IMG/VR virus record: IMGVR_UViG_3300044984_002188
Location: 1 to 57,011 of that record
Source of the DNA: a virus
DNA length: 57,011 bases
Direction: 5' to 3' (one strand)
Below are positions 863 through 30,225 of the stretch, piece after piece. Position numbers and translations under genes: made by a program. Within the stretch, counting starts at the first letter, position 1; every line of letters begins with the position of its first letter. The notes beneath the pieces are model-generated. The model was not told the origin of the DNA, did no database searches, and saw nothing but the letters and a program-made list of their open reading frames with translations.

Positions 863-1063
863 TTACTCTCCTCCACCACCATCTCCTCCACCTTCACCAC
901 CACTCTCTCCCTCTGTATTATTGTTATTGTTATATCCATAAAGACTATAACCATAATAAGGGAATGTATATCTCTTTGCTTTCTTCTTGGTTTTCTTCTT
1001 TTTCTTTTTGGTCAGATCAAGATAAAAATTATAGTTTTCTAAAAATTCTTTAAATTTCTTCAT
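863..1063 (-). CDS. Small basic internal head protein with capsid-targeting N-terminus
   Basis: This 66-residue protein opens with MKKFKEFLEN, almost identical to the openings of the 1060-1608 and 2201-2605 proteins, followed by a lysine run (about residues 18-30), a Tyr/Asn-rich stretch and a Gly/Glu-rich tail. T4 internal proteins carry a similar leader (MKTYQEFI-type) that targets them to the prohead core. Here the usual L-x-E cleavage site is replaced by L-E-N, so processing may be absent or atypical. Its ATG overlaps the stop of the upstream gene as ATGA, so the two are co-transcribed. The basic centre suggests DNA or RNA binding inside the head; this is inference. Confidence 0.6.
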   Translation of the reverse strand: MKKFKEFLENYNFYLDLTKKKKKKTKKKAKRYTFPYYGYSLYGYNNNNNTEGESGGEGGGDGGGGE

Positions 1064-1608
1064 TGCTTTATTCCGTGTATGATTCCATGTTCTAATTTTG
1101 CATCAGGGAATACCTTCTTTACATCATTCAGGTATGCGTGTGTTGGTGCATTGTTTTGCCATGAATCTTTCTTTGTCTTCTTTCCTTGTCCTGTTTTATC
1201 GCCTTCGTAAATGCCAATAAAGATTCTACCACCCGGTTTGAGTGTTGAATGTGCTGTCTTCAGGGCTTCTTGTCGGTATTCCGGCTCTTTAATGACATTC
1301 AGCACATTAAAGAGTGATGCCGTATCTGCTCCCTGCTTGCCTACAGTATCCATGATGTTCTTATTGTGTTCTTCTGGGCGATTGAAGGGATCATAGACAT
1401 GAGCGTCTACTCCCAAATTTTTAAGAAATTCTACACCATTATCAAACTTACCCCCACCATGATCAATATGAATGGTTCCGTCTTGAAACCCACCTAATTT
1501 TTTATGAACAACAGAGTAGCCAGTTGGAAGTTTGGTTTTGTTGATGCTGGTTTCGGCTGATGAGAACTCCTGAGCATCTTCTAATAAAAATTCTTTAAAT
1601 TTCTTCAT
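1060..1608 (-). CDS. SAM-methyltransferase-like protein with capsid-targeting leader
   Basis: The 182-residue protein starts MKKFKEFLLEDA, a T4-like capsid-targeting leader with a predicted prohead-protease cut after LLE (residue 10). The rest resembles a class I SAM-dependent methyltransferase: a glycine-rich motif I (IDHGGGKFDNG, about residues 48-58), an acidic motif II in VYDPFN (about 72-77), and a post-motif LKPGGRIFIGIYEG (about 125-138). The substrate cannot be told from sequence. An AATAAATA late promoter lies 8 bases before the ATG. The combination predicts an enzyme packed in the head and injected with the DNA. The methyltransferase assignment is by motif only. Confidence 0.7.
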   Translation of the reverse strand: MKKFKEFLLEDAQEFSSAETSINKTKLPTGYSVVHKKLGGFQDGTIHIDHGGGKFDNGVEFLKNLGVDAHVYDPFNRPEEHNKNIMDTVGKQGADTASLFNVLNVIKEPEYRQEALKTAHSTLKPGGRIFIGIYEGDKTGQGKKTKKDSWQNNAPTHAYLNDVKKVFPDAKLEHGIIHGIKQ

Positions 1609-1664: not shown

Positions 1665-2204
1665 ATGAGAAATGTTACTTTGCCTTATCACCTATATGTG
1701 AATGTTAAAAATTCATTTCTTGGAGAGAATATGCCTATTGGCTTTACTCCTGCTATCTGGCATGGTGTGTATTCTCGTCCGGGTCAGTTGATCTGCTGCC
1801 ATGTGATTCTTCAATCGGGTGCTCATTGGTCAGGTCTTCCTCTTGCTGCACTATCGACTACTGATGTATTTGATTCCGGTGAGAATATTAACATTCAACC
1901 TTGGGGTGGAATGGGAAATAATATTGAAACTTTTATGGCAACCTACTTGGAAGGGCTTTCCGTGAATGTCTTTCATGCCGGAAAAGAAGGTAGGCACACC
2001 GGAATTATCCTTGATTGGGAAGATGGGTATTCTCGTTACCCAGCCGAACATAAGCCCCTAAGTCTTATTGCTCTTGACTGTGGGTATTTTGCTCTCGTTC
2101 CCAATAATCATTTTACTTTAAAAGATAAGCATTTTGTGAATGATAAAAATTCAAATAATTTAAAATTTTATAAACGTGGTGAGACTGTGTATTGGGAGCG
2201 TTAA
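1665..2204 (+). CDS. Unknown protein, early gene
   Basis: A 179-residue soluble protein I cannot assign. It is rich in Gly, Trp and aromatic residues (for example IWHGVYSRPGQL and HWSGLPLAAL) and has no membrane segment. I chose ATG 1665 rather than the upstream ATG at 1626 because the latter lies upstream of a strong TTGACT-16-TATAAT promoter whose start point falls at 1664-1665, predicting a leaderless mRNA. It stands alone on the plus strand between late minus-strand genes and converges on 2201-2605 with a 4-base overlap of ends. Confidence 0.65.
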   Translation: MRNVTLPYHLYVNVKNSFLGENMPIGFTPAIWHGVYSRPGQLICCHVILQSGAHWSGLPLAALSTTDVFDSGENINIQPWGGMGNNIETFMATYLEGLSVNVFHAGKEGRHTGIILDWEDGYSRYPAEHKPLSLIALDCGYFALVPNNHFTLKDKHFVNDKNSNNLKFYKRGETVYWER

Positions 2205-2605
2205 GTATTTCTCTTGGTAGGAGATACTTTCTTACCTGATGCCCCATGCATACCCACTCTTGACTTCTCTGCCTTCTTGCGTTGCAGTTCCTTTGATGAC
2301 ATCTCTGATGAGGTCTTTGGGGTCTTCTTGCTGACTCTTTTACTTGGTCTGCAATACTCATTCTTACCACCTGCACCACAATCTTTACCAGTCTTGGTAT
2401 CTTTCCAATCCTCTGCCTCCCAGCGTTTCAGATTGGCTCCCTCTTTCGACTTTTTAACATTCCCCTTGCCTTTGCGGCACTTCGCAGTTGCTTGTGCGGC
2501 TCGTGCAGACCATTTACCGTAAGAAGCCATAACCTTGCGATAGCATGCATCCTTCTCTTCATAGAGATCGGATGATTCTGCTAAAAATTCTTTAAATTTC
2601 TTCAT
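2201..2605 (-). CDS. Basic DUF5872-like protein with capsid-targeting leader
   Basis: The 134-residue protein begins MKKFKEFLAESS, with a predicted gp21-type cut after LAE (residue 10). The rest is very rich in Lys/Arg, with GKWSARAAQATAKCRKGKG and LKRWEAEDWKDTKTG segments and cysteines near residues 21, 43, 76 and 85. From memory the WSARxAQ / W-x-x-EDW / RPSKR pattern resembles the DUF5872-type proteins of phages, giant viruses and algae; this was not searched. A highly basic protein packed in the head could bind DNA or act on host chromatin. An AT-rich AATAAAAC box, a degenerate late promoter, lies 7 bases before the ATG. Confidence 0.65.
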   Translation of the reverse strand: MKKFKEFLAESSDLYEEKDACYRKVMASYGKWSARAAQATAKCRKGKGNVKKSKEGANLKRWEAEDWKDTKTGKDCGAGGKNEYCRPSKRVSKKTPKTSSEMSSKELQRKKAEKSRVGMHGASGKKVSPTKRNT

Positions 2606-8353: not shown

Positions 8354-8428
8354 GGTCCTATCGTCTAGCCTGGTTTAGGACCTGAGACTTTCAATCTCAG
8401 TACATGGGTTCAAATCCCATTAGGATCA
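8354..8428 (+). tRNA. tRNA-Glu (TTC)
   Basis: A 75-base cloverleaf. Acceptor GGTCCTA pairs with TAGGATC, anticodon stem TGAGA/TCTCA with loop CTTTCAA (anticodon TTC), and T-arm ATGGG-TTCAAAT-CCCAT. Discriminator A at 8428. CCA is not encoded. The next ATG follows after only two bases. Confidence 0.92.
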
Positions 8429-8430
8429 CT

Positions 8431-8619: not shown

Positions 8620-8624
8620 TATTT

Positions 8625-8697
8625 TGAGGGTTAGTTCAGTTGGTAGAACGTGGGACTTTGGTTCCCAATGTCGGGAGTTCGAATCTCTCACCCTCAG
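8625..8697 (+). tRNA. tRNA-Gln (TTG)
   Basis: A 73-base cloverleaf. Acceptor TGAGGGT pairs with ACCCTCA, anticodon loop CTTTGGT gives TTG, T-arm around GGGAG-TTCGAAT-CTCTC, discriminator G. CCA is not encoded. Confidence 0.92.
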
Positions 8698-8710
8698 TTA
8701 AGGAAATAAT

Positions 8711-8970: not shown

Positions 8971-9453
8971 TTATATTTTTATATCAAGCAAGGTTCCCAT
9001 ATTGGGTTTCTTTGCTTTTTTAAGATTAATATCAGCTTGTGTATCAATATGTTTACGAATGGTTTCATTTGCATCAGCGATAGAATCATAATCCTTTTCA
9101 CTAATGCTTGATCCTCTTTCTTTTATAAGAGACTCACGAGTAGATTTTGTTATATGTTGAAGCGCATCATATAAATCTGGCTCACCATATTGAGTGGTAA
9201 GGTTTTTATGCAATTCTCCAAAGTGTTGCGAATCATCACCCAAAATCTTAGATATTGATCCACCTAAATGTTTTTTAAATTCACCATGAATACCTGTATC
9301 ATCACCTTGTACATTTGGAAGTTCAGTATTGATAAAATGTAAAAACTGACCTAATACATGATCTCTATGATCATTTATTTTTGGTTTTTTATCTCCATAA
9401 TTAAATGGTACGATGTCATTTTCTTCAAGTAAATATTGTTTAAAAGTTTTCAT
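8971..9453 (-). CDS. Internal head protein with capsid-targeting leader
   Basis: 160 residues starting MKTFKQYLLEEND, close to the T4 internal-protein leader, with predicted cleavage after LLE (residue 10) or LEE (11). The mature part is soluble, His/Asp/Lys-rich and helical with no recognised fold. AATAAATA lies 7 bases before the ATG. Likely packed in the head and injected. Confidence 0.65.
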   Translation of the reverse strand: MKTFKQYLLEENDIVPFNYGDKKPKINDHRDHVLGQFLHFINTELPNVQGDDTGIHGEFKKHLGGSISKILGDDSQHFGELHKNLTTQYGEPDLYDALQHITKSTRESLIKERGSSISEKDYDSIADANETIRKHIDTQADINLKKAKKPNMGTLLDIKI

Positions 9454-9531: not shown

Positions 9532-10146
9532 TTATCTGTTTCCTCTAAAATACATTTTATTCTGATCATCGCGCACATCACGTGCATGACTTTGATCACC
9601 GATACGTTCTAAAGTATCTTCAATATGTGCAGCAAATGCTCCTTGACCACCTAACAGTTTGTATGATGCTTTAAGCCCTTCTGCGTGTGAAGAATCAGCT
9701 TGATCTAAACTTCCTTTTTTAATTAATTGACTAAGATGTTGAGAAATTTCAGCATGAGTTTTTGGATCAATTGAACCACCTGCAGATCCACCTTCATCAT
9801 TGTCTAAAAAATCTTGAAGCATATCGGAAGAGGATGGACCTTTTTTTGCTTCATTTAAAATTCTTGGAAAGCCACCATAACTTATTTGACCATAAGAAAT
9901 AACTGTACCTTCTTTAAGGGTAGTCTTCTTCTTTTTATCAATGGCTTTCTTGATTGCCTTATCCTTAGATCCAAAGTACTCATCCTTTGATGATTCTACT
10001 TCACCATCACCATCATAGTCTTTGGTAGATTTCTTGTCCTTCTTTTTCGATTTGTTAAACTTACTGATATCAAATCGTTTCTCAATGAGATTGAGTTGAG
10101 CTTGAAGTTGTTCGTACAATGCTTTGTAGTATTCTAGGTCATTCAT
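9532..10146 (-). CDS. Internal head protein with EF-hand-like loop and paired cleavage sites
   Basis: 204 residues. An N-terminal coiled coil (YYKALYEQLQAQLNLIEKRF), a lysine-rich stretch, an Asp-rich loop DYDGDGEVESS (about 43-53) resembling a calcium-binding EF-hand/dockerin loop, and another Lys-rich helix. Then comes TLKE (E79), a 20-residue block containing YGGFP, and LNE (E99). The same block flanked by the same two L/I-x-E sites recurs in the 10918-11319 protein. TATAAATA lies 5 bases before the ATG. Likely a processed head protein. Confidence 0.6.
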   Translation of the reverse strand: MNDLEYYKALYEQLQAQLNLIEKRFDISKFNKSKKKDKKSTKDYDGDGEVESSKDEYFGSKDKAIKKAIDKKKKTTLKEGTVISYGQISYGGFPRILNEAKKGPSSSDMLQDFLDNDEGGSAGGSIDPKTHAEISQHLSQLIKKGSLDQADSSHAEGLKASYKLLGGQGAFAAHIEDTLERIGDQSHARDVRDDQNKMYFRGNR

Positions 10147-10151
10147 ATTAT

Positions 10152-10159
10152 TATTTATA
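10152..10159 (-). promoter_or_regulatory. T4-like late promoter (TATAAATA)
   Basis: Exact octamer 5 bases before the ATG at 10146; it overlaps the stop codon region of the upstream gene. Confidence 0.7.
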
Positions 10160-10892
10160 AACTTAATCGTTTATCCTGTGTTGATTTAATATACTCATTC
10201 ATTTTATCCAAATAACCCCTATTTCGTAGTTCTTTGAATACCATATTCTCAATACTCACTTCTCCAGACTTTTTAAGTCCAGAACTTCTCATATTTCGAA
10301 TCTTTTCTTTCAATTTATCAAAAGATTCATCTTCAGCATTTGATGAAATTAAATCATCAATTTTTTCAATATATTCGTTAACCTTCTTTTCAATACTTGG
10401 ATCATTTAAATCTACATCTTGGTGTTTTGGTTCCGTGATCCATTGGTCATTAAGCACGCTATAAGCCCCCTGGTCAGGTGGTACGGCTTCTTTGATGTCT
10501 TGAGCGTATATTTCTACATCATGCCCTAGAATGGAAATGTCATGAGTTAAAGACCAAAGTTGCTTCTTATCTTTAAGATAGTCATCTATTAAATTTGGGC
10601 AATTATCAATTTTTCTTTTATCAACAAGAATGTGAAGATCGATATCTGAATAAGAAGTATATGCATAACTTGCATTACCACCAACTAGAATATAATCTTC
10701 TACTGCACTTTCTGGTAAACCAACCCATTCAACCCAGGTACTCCCAATTTCTAGAAGTTTAGCTTTAATATTCTTTTTTAATTGCATACCATCCCAAATC
10801 TTTGGATTTAGTTCATTATGATATTCAAGAGTTAAAGAAGTATTTTCTTCTAAGAATTGTTTAAAAGAAAGTATTTTATATTCTTTAATCAT
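10155..10892 (-). CDS. Nucleotidyltransferase-like protein with capsid-targeting leader
   Basis: 245 residues. The leader LSFKQFLEEN (about 8-17) resembles the other capsid-targeting leaders, with a predicted cut after LEE (residue 16). The body has a polymerase-beta/MNT-type nucleotidyltransferase core: GGNASYAYTSYSDIDLHILV (about 69-88), with D-x-D at DID, and a third acidic position in HDVEIYAQD. Such enzymes add nucleotides to proteins, RNA or small molecules. Together with the leader this suggests an injected enzyme comparable in logic to T4 Alt, although the chemistry differs. The acceptor is unknown. Confidence 0.75.
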   Translation of the reverse strand: MIKEYKILSFKQFLEENTSLTLEYHNELNPKIWDGMQLKKNIKAKLLEIGSTWVEWVGLPESAVEDYILVGGNASYAYTSYSDIDLHILVDKRKIDNCPNLIDDYLKDKKQLWSLTHDISILGHDVEIYAQDIKEAVPPDQGAYSVLNDQWITEPKHQDVDLNDPSIEKKVNEYIEKIDDLISSNAEDESFDKLKEKIRNMRSSGLKKSGEVSIENMVFKELRNRGYLDKMNEYIKSTQDKRLSL

Positions 10893-10917: not shown

Positions 10918-11319
10918 TTAATTTACTCTTTGGCCATTTCCGTAATCAACAAACCACTGTTGCATGCGTTCCCATAAATCTAACCATTGTTGCCAACGTA
11001 TTAGAAAATCTGGTCTACTTTCACCAGGAATTTGCTTTGGTTGATTGTCTTTTTGCCAATTCCACCACCAATCTATCCATTCTTGTGAATTTCCAGGTGG
11101 TGGTACAGGTTTATCTGTTGGATACACTCCAGGAGGTGGTCCAGCTGGAATTCCTGGAGCTGGTCCCCCCGCACCATTACTATTCGTAGAAGTTTGAGCA
11201 GTTATTACAGTAGGCTCATTAACTTCATTAATATTTTTAGGAAATCCACCATAATTAATAATATTGTTTCCTATTACTCTACCTTCATTTAAATTATATT
11301 TTTTATTATAGTAATTCAT
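10918..11319 (-). CDS. Internal head protein with paired cleavage sites
   Basis: 133 residues. The N-terminus has NLNE (E12) and NINE (E32) flanking a 20-residue block with INYGGFP, almost the same block as in the 9532-10146 protein. The rest is Pro/Gly-rich then Trp-rich (WIDWWWNWQKD; WQQWLDLWERMQQW). Processing would release the block and a mature C-terminal part. Function unknown. Confidence 0.55.
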   Translation of the reverse strand: MNYYNKKYNLNEGRVIGNNIINYGGFPKNINEVNEPTVITAQTSTNSNGAGGPAPGIPAGPPPGVYPTDKPVPPPGNSQEWIDWWWNWQKDNQPKQIPGESRPDFLIRWQQWLDLWERMQQWFVDYGNGQRVN

Positions 11320-11322
11320 TTA

Positions 11323-11709
11323 TTATCTCATTCCGTGTAAACCTTTTAATCTCATGACTTCTCGTGTATATGCATTTCCTTGAGAAGTATTTAAAGTCTG
11401 CCAACTTGCATTTTCTGGTTGTTCAGTTTCTAAAGTATTTGGATTATCATAATCTAATGTTATTAGCTCTCTAATCTCTGCTTCTGTTTCTGGTGTATGT
11501 GTAAAACCCTGATATGGTAGAGGCTTTAAAGGATCCTCTGGAGGTGGCATACCCTTCTTACCCCCCTTACCTTTTTTAGAAGGCATACCAGGAGGTGGCA
11601 TAACACCCGGAGGCATTGCCATTTGAGGCATTCCGGGTCCACCTGGAGGACCAACTAATGCTAATTCTTCATTTATAAAAGCTTTAAACGATAAAATTGA
11701 TTTTTTCAT
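11323..11709 (-). CDS. Pro/Gly/Met-rich internal head protein candidate
   Basis: 128 residues starting MKKSILSFKAFINEELAL; the SFKAFINE stretch matches the capsid-targeting leaders, with a predicted cut after INE (residue 14). A Pro/Gly/Met-rich disordered stretch and a KKGKGGKKG basic patch follow, then an acidic C-terminal half. The ATG overlaps the stop of the upstream gene. Function unknown. Confidence 0.6.
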   Translation of the reverse strand: MKKSILSFKAFINEELALVGPPGGPGMPQMAMPPGVMPPPGMPSKKGKGGKKGMPPPEDPLKPLPYQGFTHTPETEAEIRELITLDYDNPNTLETEQPENASWQTLNTSQGNAYTREVMRLKGLHGMR

Positions 11710-12389
11710 GTGTTATTTCCATTATAACTGTTATCATTATAATTTTTAATTTTATAAACTTGGCGAGAATATTGATCGTAATGATATGTTTCTGTAGGAA
11801 CAGTAGGTGCTGCACGACCTGATACTTCATCGGGTACATAAAGATTATATTTTTGTAACATTGCTTTTAAATTTTGTTGTAAATGATTGGCAACAGCGTT
11901 ATTCATTGTTTGCCATGTTACAACTTTTGATTCTGGTGCTAAATTAAATTTTTCTTTTACTTTATCAGTATAGGCGCGGCTAACAGAACTGTTATCAGTT
12001 TTATCAGCATATTGATTAACAAATTGTTGTACTGAAGCAGTTAAAGTTGGAGCTAGTTCAAATCCCATACCAAAACTTGCTGTATTTACAGAAGTTCCGG
12101 GAGTATTGGCTACAATTACTGCCCCTGCACCAGTTTGGTTTTCTGCAGTATCAAATGCTGGGAATACACTAGCAATTGATTCTATACCTTTAACTGGAAC
12201 TAATACAGGTTCTTTAGGTGGTGCAGCAGCTTCAAAAATACCTTTAGATGTTTTATTTCGTTTAAAAGAATCAAATAATTGAGATTTAATTCCTTTGTTG
12301 ACTTTTTTAATGCCTAAAGCAGAAGAATTTAGTTTTGAACTAAAAACATCCTGCACGTTATAAACATTTCCTTCATTCGTTTCTTGCAT
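11706..12389 (-). CDS. Internal head protein candidate (IFE site)
   Basis: 227 residues. After a basic N-terminal region of about 50 residues comes GIFEAAAPP, an excellent gp21-type site (cut after E53, followed by Ala). The mature part has no recognised fold. TATAAATA lies 5 bases before the ATG, so this is the first gene of the late group running down to 9532. Confidence 0.6.
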   Translation of the reverse strand: MQETNEGNVYNVQDVFSSKLNSSALGIKKVNKGIKSQLFDSFKRNKTSKGIFEAAAPPKEPVLVPVKGIESIASVFPAFDTAENQTGAGAVIVANTPGTSVNTASFGMGFELAPTLTASVQQFVNQYADKTDNSSVSRAYTDKVKEKFNLAPESKVVTWQTMNNAVANHLQQNLKAMLQKYNLYVPDEVSGRAAPTVPTETYHYDQYSRQVYKIKNYNDNSYNGNNT

Positions 12390-12394
12390 AATAC

Positions 12395-12402
12395 TATTTA
12401 TA
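12395..12402 (-). promoter_or_regulatory. T4-like late promoter (TATAAATA)
   Basis: Exact octamer 5 bases before the ATG at 12389. Confidence 0.7.
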
Positions 12403-14727: not shown

Positions 14728-14810
14728 GCAAGAGTACTCAAGCGGTCAACGAGAGCAGATTGTAAATCTGCTGATTAATTTCTACGAAGGTTCGAATCCC
14801 TCCTCTTGCA
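14728..14810 (+). tRNA. tRNA-Tyr (GTA)
   Basis: An 83-base tRNA with a long variable arm (class II). Acceptor GCAAGAG pairs with CTCTTGC, anticodon stem GCAGA/TCTGC with GTA anticodon, T-loop TTCGAAT, discriminator A. CCA is not encoded. Confidence 0.92.
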
Positions 14811-16366: not shown

Positions 16367-16391
16367 AAAAAATCCCCGAAAGGGGATTTTT
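16366..16391. terminator. Bidirectional Rho-independent terminator
   Basis: AAATCCCC-GAAA-GGGGATTT with A-run before and T-run after, placed between the convergent genes ending at 16366 and 16390. Works in both directions. Confidence 0.85.
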
Positions 16392-17106
16392 AAATATAAT
16401 CTTCTTCATTTAAAATATCTAAAAATCCTAAATCGTATTCTTCAACAAAACTTTTAGAAGGATATGAAATCCAATGAATATCTTTCTTAGATCTTATAGC
16501 CATCTTACCTGAAGGATTTCTTTGTTGAAATCTTTTAAGATATCTTTTAGTTTCGCTATCTGGAATATGTTTCCATGCCTTGGCGTTTTTAAAATTCTTA
16601 AATTCAACATCATCAACATCAAACATTTCTACTGGCATACGACTAAACATAGGTATATCTAATGGTTTTTCATATCCCATTACTGCACCAGAATTCTGTA
16701 CAGTTTGAGGTGTGCCAAGAGTACCGGGAGCACCACCACCAGAAACCATACCAGTACCCATATCTTCGTTAATTAATAAACCAGATTCTAGATAACCTTC
16801 AATAAAGAATAAAAATTCACTAGAATTCAATCCCAATAATTCTGCTTCTTCATTAAACATTTGAAAAGTAGAAACATAACTAGCTAAACGTGCTTTTGTA
16901 TAACTCATGGGAAGTTGATCAAAAATCTTCTTCAATTTAATTATAAAATATTCGTAAGGATCTATGCTACTTTCAGGTTTAAGTAGATTACCATTTGCAT
17001 CGATTACTCCAGATGAAAAAGCTGCTAGACTCGTATAAGGAGCCGTAATAGTTTCAGAAAATTTGGATAATGAGAATGAAGGTATGTAAGCTGATGAAGA
17101 CTGCAT
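16390..17106 (-). CDS. Probable virion/internal protein
   Basis: 238 residues, last gene of the minus-strand late operon. No family is recognised. L/I-x-E candidates include LINED (E114). A Gly-rich linker (about 119-128) separates two folded-looking halves; the C-terminal half is basic (KRYLKRFQQRNPSGKMAIRSKKD). ACTAAATA lies 7 bases before the ATG, so it has its own late promoter. Confidence 0.55.
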   Translation of the reverse strand: MQSSSAYIPSFSLSKFSETITAPYTSLAAFSSGVIDANGNLLKPESSIDPYEYFIIKLKKIFDQLPMSYTKARLASYVSTFQMFNEEAELLGLNSSEFLFFIEGYLESGLLINEDMGTGMVSGGGAPGTLGTPQTVQNSGAVMGYEKPLDIPMFSRMPVEMFDVDDVEFKNFKNAKAWKHIPDSETKRYLKRFQQRNPSGKMAIRSKKDIHWISYPSKSFVEEYDLGFLDILNEEDYI

Positions 17107-17113
17107 ATACTAA

Positions 17114-17121
17114 TATTTAGT
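17114..17121 (-). promoter_or_regulatory. Late-type promoter (ACTAAATA)
   Basis: ACTAAATA 7 bases before the ATG at 17106; it overlaps the stop of the upstream gene. Confidence 0.55.
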
Positions 17122-17515
17122 TTTCAGCCTGTAACAACTTTCGATCAACTCTAGGGTCTGTATTAATTTTATTATAATTAACTTCTGGAATAGATACAGC
17201 ACCAAATTCCAAAAATACTAGAAATGATTTCAAATATGAATGTAATCTTGGTTCTAGTTTAAAAAAGAGAATTCTAATGCAATTCTCTTCACCAAACACA
17301 TTTCTTAAAATTATAATATGGTTCATTATAAGACGTTCTCTTATAGATTTTAACGTCTTATGCTTATGAATTTTTTGTAATAGTCTCTTAACGTACTTAA
17401 TACGCTTTAAATCATCAATAAATTCATTTTTTCCAGAACATTCTGGATTAAAATAAGTCTTTTGACAGAAGTCTAAAAAGTCTTCCTCATTCAAAAAGCT
17501 ACTTTTTGGATTCAT
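17117..17515 (-). CDS. Conserved T4-like phage protein of unknown function
   Basis: 132 residues from ATG 17515, which follows the previous gene by 7 bases; a longer frame to 17551 would overlap it. The run FNPECSGKNEFIDDLKRIKY, then KSIRERLIMNHIIILRNVFG and RILFFKLEP, matches from memory a protein common in T4-like marine phages, always without a known function. Mostly helical, soluble. Confidence 0.65.
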   Translation of the reverse strand: MNPKSSFLNEEDFLDFCQKTYFNPECSGKNEFIDDLKRIKYVKRLLQKIHKHKTLKSIRERLIMNHIIILRNVFGEENCIRILFFKLEPRLHSYLKSFLVFLEFGAVSIPEVNYNKINTDPRVDRKLLQAEN

Positions 17516-17522
17516 TGTTATA

Positions 17523-18068
17523 TTAATGCATGCAGCCACAATCGGTCCCACTATTTAATGAAGAATCACCACCGGGTACAATTGCTATATTAAGTTTCTT
17601 TAAGAAATTTGGTTGTTTGGTAACAGTAACAGATAAAGTTAATGAATGTCCTAATTTTTCTTTAATTCCATCACCTTGACTGAAACCATTTACACTTACA
17701 TCATCATATGGATTCTGACCGTATACACCTAGTTGTGGACTACCATATTGAACTAGTTCAAACGAATTTGGTCCATCTTGGAGTGCTGATTTATATCCAA
17801 AATCAAAACCAAAATGGTTTAATTTTTGTTTAATAACTGCCATTACTCCATCTGGATCAATGTATTCTCTTGATGAGAATCCATAAAGCATAGCATTAAT
17901 AGCATCAATTGAATGTGGAAGCTTTATATTAAAAGTACCTTTGTCAGTTAAAGCTGATTGACCTAATCGACCTTGAGGATCACCAATGTAAAGTCCACCA
18001 CCAAAGGTTTGTTCTGGTGCGTTTTCTTGTAATACGTTAATTTTGTTTAATAATTGTTTAAATTTCAT
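17523..18068 (-). CDS. Internal/virion protein with targeting leader
   Basis: 181 residues starting MKFKQLLNKINVLQENAPEQ; the LQE (E15) fits a prohead-protease cut. The mature part is Gly/Pro-containing and beta-like, with repeated YG and QDGPNSF segments. It ends in DCGCMH. No family recognised. ACTAAATA lies 12 bases upstream. Confidence 0.6.
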   Translation of the reverse strand: MKFKQLLNKINVLQENAPEQTFGGGLYIGDPQGRLGQSALTDKGTFNIKLPHSIDAINAMLYGFSSREYIDPDGVMAVIKQKLNHFGFDFGYKSALQDGPNSFELVQYGSPQLGVYGQNPYDDVSVNGFSQGDGIKEKLGHSLTLSVTVTKQPNFLKKLNIAIVPGGDSSLNSGTDCGCMH

Positions 18069-30127: not shown

Positions 30128-30146
30128 AATTATTACAGATTTGAAA

Positions 30147-30218
30147 CTCCTCGGGCTGGACTCGAACCAGTAACCGTTCGCTTAACAGGCGAATGCTCTA
30201 CCATTGAGCTACCGAAGA
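30147..30218 (-). tRNA. tRNA-Asn (GTT)
   Basis: A 72-base cloverleaf on the minus strand. Acceptor TCTTCGG pairs with CCGAGGA (one T-G pair), anticodon stem TCGCC/AGCGA region with GTT anticodon, and T-arm ACTGG-TTCGAGT-CCAGC as in bacterial tRNA-Asn. Discriminator G. CCA is not encoded. Confidence 0.92.
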
Positions 30219-30225
30219 ACGTGAT

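What the first reader, a model, noticed from the sequence alone, without database searches (positions are those of the whole stretch)
10155..10892. Nucleotidyltransferase-like enzyme with a capsid-targeting leader
Seen: SFKQFLEE leader and a GGNASYAYTSYSDIDLH core with D-x-D. T4 injects the ADP-ribosyltransferase Alt; here the analogous cargo would be a nucleotide-adding enzyme, perhaps AMPylating host proteins or tRNAs, or acting like a toxin.
Basis: partly seen in the sequence, partly recalled or inferred. Interest (0 to 1): 0.7.

Follow-up and report, generated by a model that had tools for sequence, protein, structure and literature searches.

The report
Phage-packaged nucleotide-transferring enzyme with capsid leader
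This gene from an uncultured T4-like phage makes a probable nucleotide-transferring enzyme with a T4-style "put me in the capsid" tag; a relative's protein was already found in purified virus particles, so the phage probably delivers the enzyme into the bacterium together with its DNA.

Summary
The 245-aa ORF on the minus strand has the leader and the D-x-D core. The core fits the Pol-beta nucleotidyltransferase fold: GG71-72, D83-x-D85 and E127 are conserved in 76-78 of 78 relatives, the AlphaFold model has mean pLDDT 88, and the nearest solved folds are nucleotidyltransferases. The leader fits the T4 internal-protein capsid-targeting pattern (hydrophobic at 4 and 7, L/I at 8, E at 10). In this window the motif occurs five times, always at an N-terminus. 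I found three further supports for packaging. (1) The homolog in cyanophage S-CREM2 (gp156, unannotated) was detected by mass spectrometry in CsCl-purified virions. (2) The same leader marks other S-CREM2 virion enzymes (6 of 50 virion proteins against 2 of 167 others). (3) 55 of 108 family genes carry a T4 late-promoter box just upstream (1.2 expected). Some relatives are fused to lysozyme-like domains. Most likely this is late-made, capsid-packaged, ejected cargo. The acceptor is unknown, so AMPylation and toxicity remain guesses. It is a new cargo class for a known delivery principle. Main weakness: the S-CREM2 homolog has only a shortened leader, and cleavage was never observed.

The parts
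10155..10892 (-). Nucleotidyltransferase-like cargo gene, 245 aa (P0001)
   Evidence: phrog_36119 E 2.8e-80
10845..10865 (-). Leader core FKQFLEE (residues 10-16), T4 capsid-targeting-like pattern; predicted prohead-protease cut after LEE (residue 16)
   Evidence: helix 10-18 of low confidence, separate from the domain; cut site inferred
10413..10832 (-). Palm (nucleotidyltransferase) domain, residues 21-160
   Evidence: AlphaFold2 model, Foldseek, family alignment A1
10677..10682 (-). G71-G72 after strand 1, nucleotide-binding loop
   Evidence: 78/78 and 76/78 conserved
10638..10646 (-). D83-I-D85, metal-binding D-x-D
   Evidence: both aspartates invariant in 78 sequences
10512..10514 (-). 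E127, third acid, in strand 124-132
   Evidence: invariant in 78 sequences; strand
10158..10412 (-). C-terminal helical domain with invariant R202, E211, N216, K220, R223
12395..12402 (-). T4 late-promoter box TATAAATA at the head of the gene run that ends with the nucleotidyltransferase gene
11706..12389 (-). First gene of that run, unknown function
11323..11709 (-). Same run; second cargo candidate with leader SFKAFINEE
10918..11319 (-). Same run; unknown, shares a YGGFPxxxNE motif with 9532-10146
   Evidence: translations; both match the same relatives
9532..10146 (-). Neighbour with its own TATAAATA box
8971..9453 (-). Cargo candidate with leader MKTFKQYLLEE and late-promoter box
1060..1608 (-). 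Cargo candidate with leader MKKFKEFLLED and late-promoter box
2201..2605 (-). Cargo candidate with leader MKKFKEFLAES
16390..17106 (-). Separate protein whose domain (phrog_18642/2086) is fused to the nucleotidyltransferase in L125 and L142

Best explanation
The gene encodes a late-made internal head protein of a T4-like phage. Its N-terminal leader binds it to the prohead core, and the prohead protease (gp21 type) then removes the leader after LEE, leaving a two-domain Pol-beta-superfamily nucleotidyltransferase inside the head. It enters the cell with the DNA and transfers a nucleotide to an acceptor that is conserved across bacteria. Shown here: leader pattern, fold and conserved acids, late-promoter boxes, and virion presence of a homolog (published mass spectrometry). 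Inferred: cleavage, ejection, catalysis and a host acceptor.
For: Leader: matches the spacing of the four T4 IPIII positions reported as needed for targeting (4, 7) and processing (8, 10); five window ORFs carry it at the N-terminus, none internally; in 1297 non-family genes of related contigs it is 4.8-fold enriched at N-termini with a peak at residue 4 (p 3e-9). Virion presence: S-CREM2 gp156, 126012-126725, 6 unique peptides, 15.2% coverage. Other S-CREM2 virion proteins with the leader: SAM hydrolase, kinase, cytidylyltransferase, Cas9-like nuclease, gp13, gp136; 6/50 against 2/167, p 0.002. Late expression: ATAAATA within 40 nt upstream of 55 of 108 family genes, 1.2 expected. Protease present in relatives: Peptidase_S77 over cut-off in 9 of 21 records. 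Fold. Modularity: leaderless relatives align from residue ~21; L087 has a second leader between two domains; L099 and L102 carry lysozyme/endolysin domains.
Against: The S-CREM2 homolog has only a short leader (MKKLISE), not the full motif. The S-CREM2 authors warn that regulatory proteins in the preparation might be carry-over. 49 of 109 unique family members lack even a relaxed leader motif, and in 20 relatives it lies at residues 46-54 behind another module. No cleavage, catalysis or acceptor is shown. Foldseek TM-scores to solved structures are low.
Confidence: 0.7

Rival explanations
1. The enzyme is packaged, but acts inside the head or during assembly, or is merely carried along; it has no target in the next host.
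For: Virion presence of a homolog does not show ejection. Fusions to lysozyme-like domains would also suit a particle-bound part.
Against: Invariant catalytic acids and invariant basic residues in both domains argue for a reaction that needs NTPs, which the head is not known to supply (inference).
Confidence: 0.12
2. An intracellular late enzyme (nucleotide or RNA metabolism); the leader is only a helical cap and the mass-spectrometry signal is carry-over.
For: Lak and Maribacter phage members have no recognisable leader; S-CREM2 authors mention possible carry-over.
Against: The same leader sits on unrelated proteins in one genome and between domains in L087; carry-over does not explain leader enrichment among virion proteins.
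Confidence: 0.12
3. Within the packaged-cargo reading: an RNA-repair nucleotidyltransferase of the RlaP or CCA-adding type, delivered early to mend tRNAs cut by host defence.
For: Such Pol-beta enzymes are common in large phages (PMC7824862); the hosts are diverse, which suits a universal substrate such as tRNA.
Against: No Pfam match to a Pol-beta family other than NTP_transf_2 for the window protein at E <= 1. Mature proteins of the window clade are acidic, pI about 4.9, though marine members are basic.
Confidence: 0.15
4. Within the packaged-cargo reading: an injected toxin or host-protein AMPylator in the manner of Alt.
For: Foldseek neighbours include the MNT antitoxin that AMPylates its HEPN partner; Pol-beta domains in mobile-element effectors are proposed to modify proteins (PMC5512222).
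Against: No acceptor evidence; the match to MNT covers only the palm core.
Confidence: 0.3

Closest known systems
T4 internal proteins IPI-IPIII (capsid-targeting-sequence cargo)
   Same: Short N-terminal leader with the same key positions; late genes; T4-type protease in relatives
   Different: IPs are small proteins of other fold; no nucleotidyltransferase is known to me among them; the leader is internal in some relatives here
T4 Alt (injected ADP-ribosyltransferase)
   Same: Enzyme packaged in the head; Alt's leader is cut after ITE-6 (PMC5694885), similar to MKKLISE of S-CREM2 gp156
   Different: Unrelated enzyme superfamily
Pol-beta superfamily nucleotidyltransferases (NTP_transf_2; MNT, AAD(9), ANT(4'), CdnE)
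   Same: G-G, D-x-D and third acid on the expected strands; closest solved folds
   Different: Own family (phrog_36119) with own helical domain and invariant H87, K109/K110, R202, E211, N216; low overall TM-score
Polyvalent proteins of phages and conjugative elements (PMC5512222)
   Same: Multi-domain effectors delivered with the DNA; Pol-beta domains and lysozymes occur among them
   Different: [quoted passage not shown] here the enzyme is in phages and prohead-protease sites would do the cutting

Membership tests
T4-type capsid-targeting-sequence cargo | N-terminal leader with residues at positions 4, 7 (targeting), 8, 10 (processing) | tested here: met
   Pattern F..FL.E in the window protein, shifted by 6 residues; exact numbering in 1060, 2201 and 8971. 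The IPIII letters themselves are from memory, the positions from PMC9026906
T4-type capsid-targeting-sequence cargo | Present in the virion | tested here: inconclusive
   Met for the S-CREM2 homolog gp156 by published mass spectrometry; no data for this phage
T4-type capsid-targeting-sequence cargo | Leader cut by the prohead protease | not testable with these tools
   Protease present in relatives; cut N-terminus not observed
T4-type capsid-targeting-sequence cargo | Late transcription | tested here: met
   Late-promoter box at the operon head and before 55/108 family genes; promoter activity itself not shown
Pol-beta nucleotidyltransferase superfamily | hG[GS], D-x-D and third acid on consecutive strands | tested here: met
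Pol-beta nucleotidyltransferase superfamily | Curated Pfam cut-off for NTP_transf_2 | tested here: not met
   15.6 bits against 21 for the window protein; relative L142 reaches 21.1, 68/78 members at E <= 0.1. A cut-off for the model, not a structural feature of the superfamily
MNT antitoxin of HEPN-MNT pairs | Minimal domain beside a HEPN gene | tested here: not met
   Two-domain protein; no HEPN match in nine nearby ORFs
RlaP / CCA-adding RNA-repair enzymes | Match to the family models | tested here: not met
   No such Pfam match at E <= 1 for the window protein; none among the 25 families listed for the 78 members
CD-NTases | Overall CD-NTase fold | tested here: inconclusive
   Best Foldseek E 2.6e-4 is CdnE but TM 0.2 and rmsd 15.6
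Alt ADP-ribosyltransferases | ART domain | tested here: not met
   No ART match

The most novel reading that the evidence does not exclude
Aquatic T4-like phages use the T4 capsid-targeting leader as a general cargo code for a battery of enzymes. This nucleotidyltransferase is a first-strike effector that modifies a universal bacterial component, and fused cargo is split inside the prohead by the prohead protease at leader-like sites.
Probability: 0.35. Interest if true: 0.82.

Novelty: new variant of a known kind. Interest (0 to 1): 0.6.

Why it matters
Head-packaged enzymes act before any phage gene is expressed. A readable leader would let packaged effectors be picked out of uncultured phage genomes, most of which have no proteomics. 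It also gives a testable role to a phage protein family, common in IMG/VR contigs, that is now 'unknown function'.

Tried and rejected
phmmer and a profile search against PDB sequences: only weak hits. NCBIfam: none. Charge of the mature protein as a clue to an RNA substrate: varies from pI 4.8 to 9.5 within the family, not informative. The loose test 'any [LIMF].E in the first 15 residues' does not separate virion from other S-CREM2 proteins (p 0.11), so cleavage-site matches alone are not evidence. The extra N-terminal module of relatives found only two short Aeromonas phage hits. Window neighbours had no homolog in S-CREM2. Sigma-70-like promoter matches barely exceeded the shuffles (50 against 41.5, sd 7.6). 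The exact box TATAAATA is not more frequent in the window than by chance (9 against 7.1); only its position before starts is informative. Literature searches for injected nucleotidyltransferases or capsid targeting in cyanophages found no report.

Full report
What is there. The ORF at 10155-10892 (minus strand, 245 aa) is real. It belongs to phrog_36119, a phage family of unknown function (E 2.8e-80). The window is a 57-kb virus record, probably a fragment, with T4-type DNA polymerase, UvsX, helicase, primase and tail-fibre genes; its polymerase is about 41% identical to those of cyanophages, and the host is unknown. Relatives occur in 45 phage records (T4-like cyanophages of the S-CRM01 / S-CREM2 group, Caulobacter phage Cr30, Maribacter phages, Lak megaphages), in at least 589 matching stretches of IMG/VR, and in only 18 bacterial or archaeal genome loci, mostly metagenome bins.

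The enzyme core. GG71-72, S82, D83, D85, H87, K109, K110, E127, R202, E211, N216, K220 and R223 are invariant or nearly so in 78 sequences. 68 of these match Pfam NTP_transf_2 at E <= 0.1, best 7.9e-5. AlphaFold2 gives mean pLDDT 88: strand 64-70 followed by G-G, strand 84-90 starting at D-x-D, helix 102-116, strand 124-132 with E127, then a helical domain. That is the order expected for the Pol-beta nucleotidyltransferase fold (established knowledge). Foldseek against PDB returns mainly such enzymes (CdnE, AAD(9), MNT, ANT(4'), poly(A) polymerase), with low TM-scores. The superfamily is therefore well supported; the subfamily is its own.

The leader. In T4 IPIII the targeting positions are 4 and 7 and the processing positions 8 and 10 (PMC9026906). 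The window leaders follow that spacing: MKTFKQYLLEE, MKKFKEFLLED, MKKFKEFLAES, and, shifted by a few residues, SFKQFLEE and SFKAFINEE. The motif appears five times at N-termini and never internally in 86 window genes (p 8e-6). In 1297 other genes of related contigs it is enriched 4.8-fold at N-termini, with 17 of 28 hits at residue 4 (p 3e-9; some of these genes are homologs of one another, so the p-value is optimistic). The leader is modular: homologs without it start at about residue 21, the model shows it as a low-confidence helix apart from the domain, and L087 has one leader at its start and another (FIRFLSEE) just before its nucleotidyltransferase domain.

Virion evidence. In S-CREM2 the homolog is gp156 (126012-126725). 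It is listed as a hypothetical protein in the virion proteome, with 6 unique peptides and 15.2% coverage (PMC10665884 Table 3). It has only a short leader, MKKLISE, comparable to T4 Alt, cut after ITE-6 (PMC5694885), and to the start MKLITE of the Peptidase_S77 proteins in relatives. The full leader is on six other S-CREM2 virion proteins, including a SAM hydrolase, a kinase, a cytidylyltransferase and a Cas9-like nuclease (6/50 against 2/167 non-virion, p 0.002). The authors caution that some such proteins could be carry-over. I used their table as printed.

Late expression. The T4 late-promoter box ATAAATA occurs 25 times in the window; 12 lie within 25 nt upstream of an ORF start (0.34 expected). 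One heads the gene run 12389 to 10155 that ends with this gene. Across the family, 55 of 108 unique genes have the box within 40 nt upstream (1.2 expected; related contigs are not independent). Late expression fits head cargo and fits early metabolic enzymes poorly (inference). The box 5 nt before the first ATG of the long forms also suggests that their extra N-terminal module is translated, which makes the leader internal in those relatives.

Fusions. L102 joins the enzyme to a phage lysozyme domain (E 4e-7) and L099 to an endolysin profile (E 8.5e-49), each after an SLNE sequence that would fit an L-x-E cut (inference). L125 and L142 join it to a domain (phrog_18642) that in this window is the separate protein 16390-17106.

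How it most likely works. Made late, held in the prohead core by the leader, trimmed by the prohead protease, packaged, ejected with the DNA; then it transfers a nucleotide to something in the new host. The hosts range from cyanobacteria to Caulobacter and Bacteroidota, so the acceptor is probably universal (inference). Charge does not tell whether it is nucleic acid. I rate packaging about 0.85, an active nucleotidyltransferase about 0.85 and action on a host component after injection about 0.6.

Novelty. T4-type internal proteins and Alt are known, and virion-delivered effectors are known. [quoted passage not shown] A packaged phage nucleotidyltransferase with a T4-type leader was not found in the papers searched, though that library is open-access only. 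I call it a new variant of a known kind.

Noticed in passing
window: 1060, 3205, 7538, 8971, 9532, 11706, 13439, 18983 and others: T4 late-promoter box ATAAATA only 5-7 nt before the ATG, without a clear Shine-Dalgarno sequence, which suggests leaderless late messages; tail genes 49577 and 55767 have it 13-15 nt away with a Shine-Dalgarno.
   Followed up: partly
L007:5860-6729, L018:5872-6729 and about 18 other loci: Extra ~45-aa N-terminal module (KxYVLDSTGKKVLGKHSSKKKAVAQLQAIEISK) before the leader in many relatives; matches phrog_3684 of unknown function.
   Followed up: partly
L087:2600-4951: 783-aa polyprotein-like ORF: leader, 'ALASPHADAHT' repeat domain, second leader, nucleotidyltransferase.
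   Followed up: partly
L099:3594-5207 and L102:3995-5530: Nucleotidyltransferase fused to lysozyme/endolysin-like domains, with further leader-bearing ORFs upstream in both loci.
   Followed up: partly
S-CREM2 (OR473000.1) gp6, gp12, gp13, gp14, gp136, gp154: Unrelated virion-detected proteins share the T4-like leader; not mentioned in the S-CREM2 passages I read.
   Followed up: yes
window 10918-11319 and 9532-10146 (-): Two neighbouring proteins share a YGGFP[KR]x[IL]NE motif, possibly another protease site.
   Followed up: no
window 17117-17551 (-): DUF7207 / phrog_407 protein (E 1.7e-31) of unknown function.
   Followed up: no
window 8354-8429, 8624-8698, 14728-14810, 30146-30219: tRNA genes Glu, Gln, Tyr and Asn; two lie beside the cargo genes.
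   Followed up: no
L061 (Lak-A1): The Lak homolog contains 4 in-frame stops under table 11 and reads through with code 15 (TAG as an amino acid).
   Followed up: no
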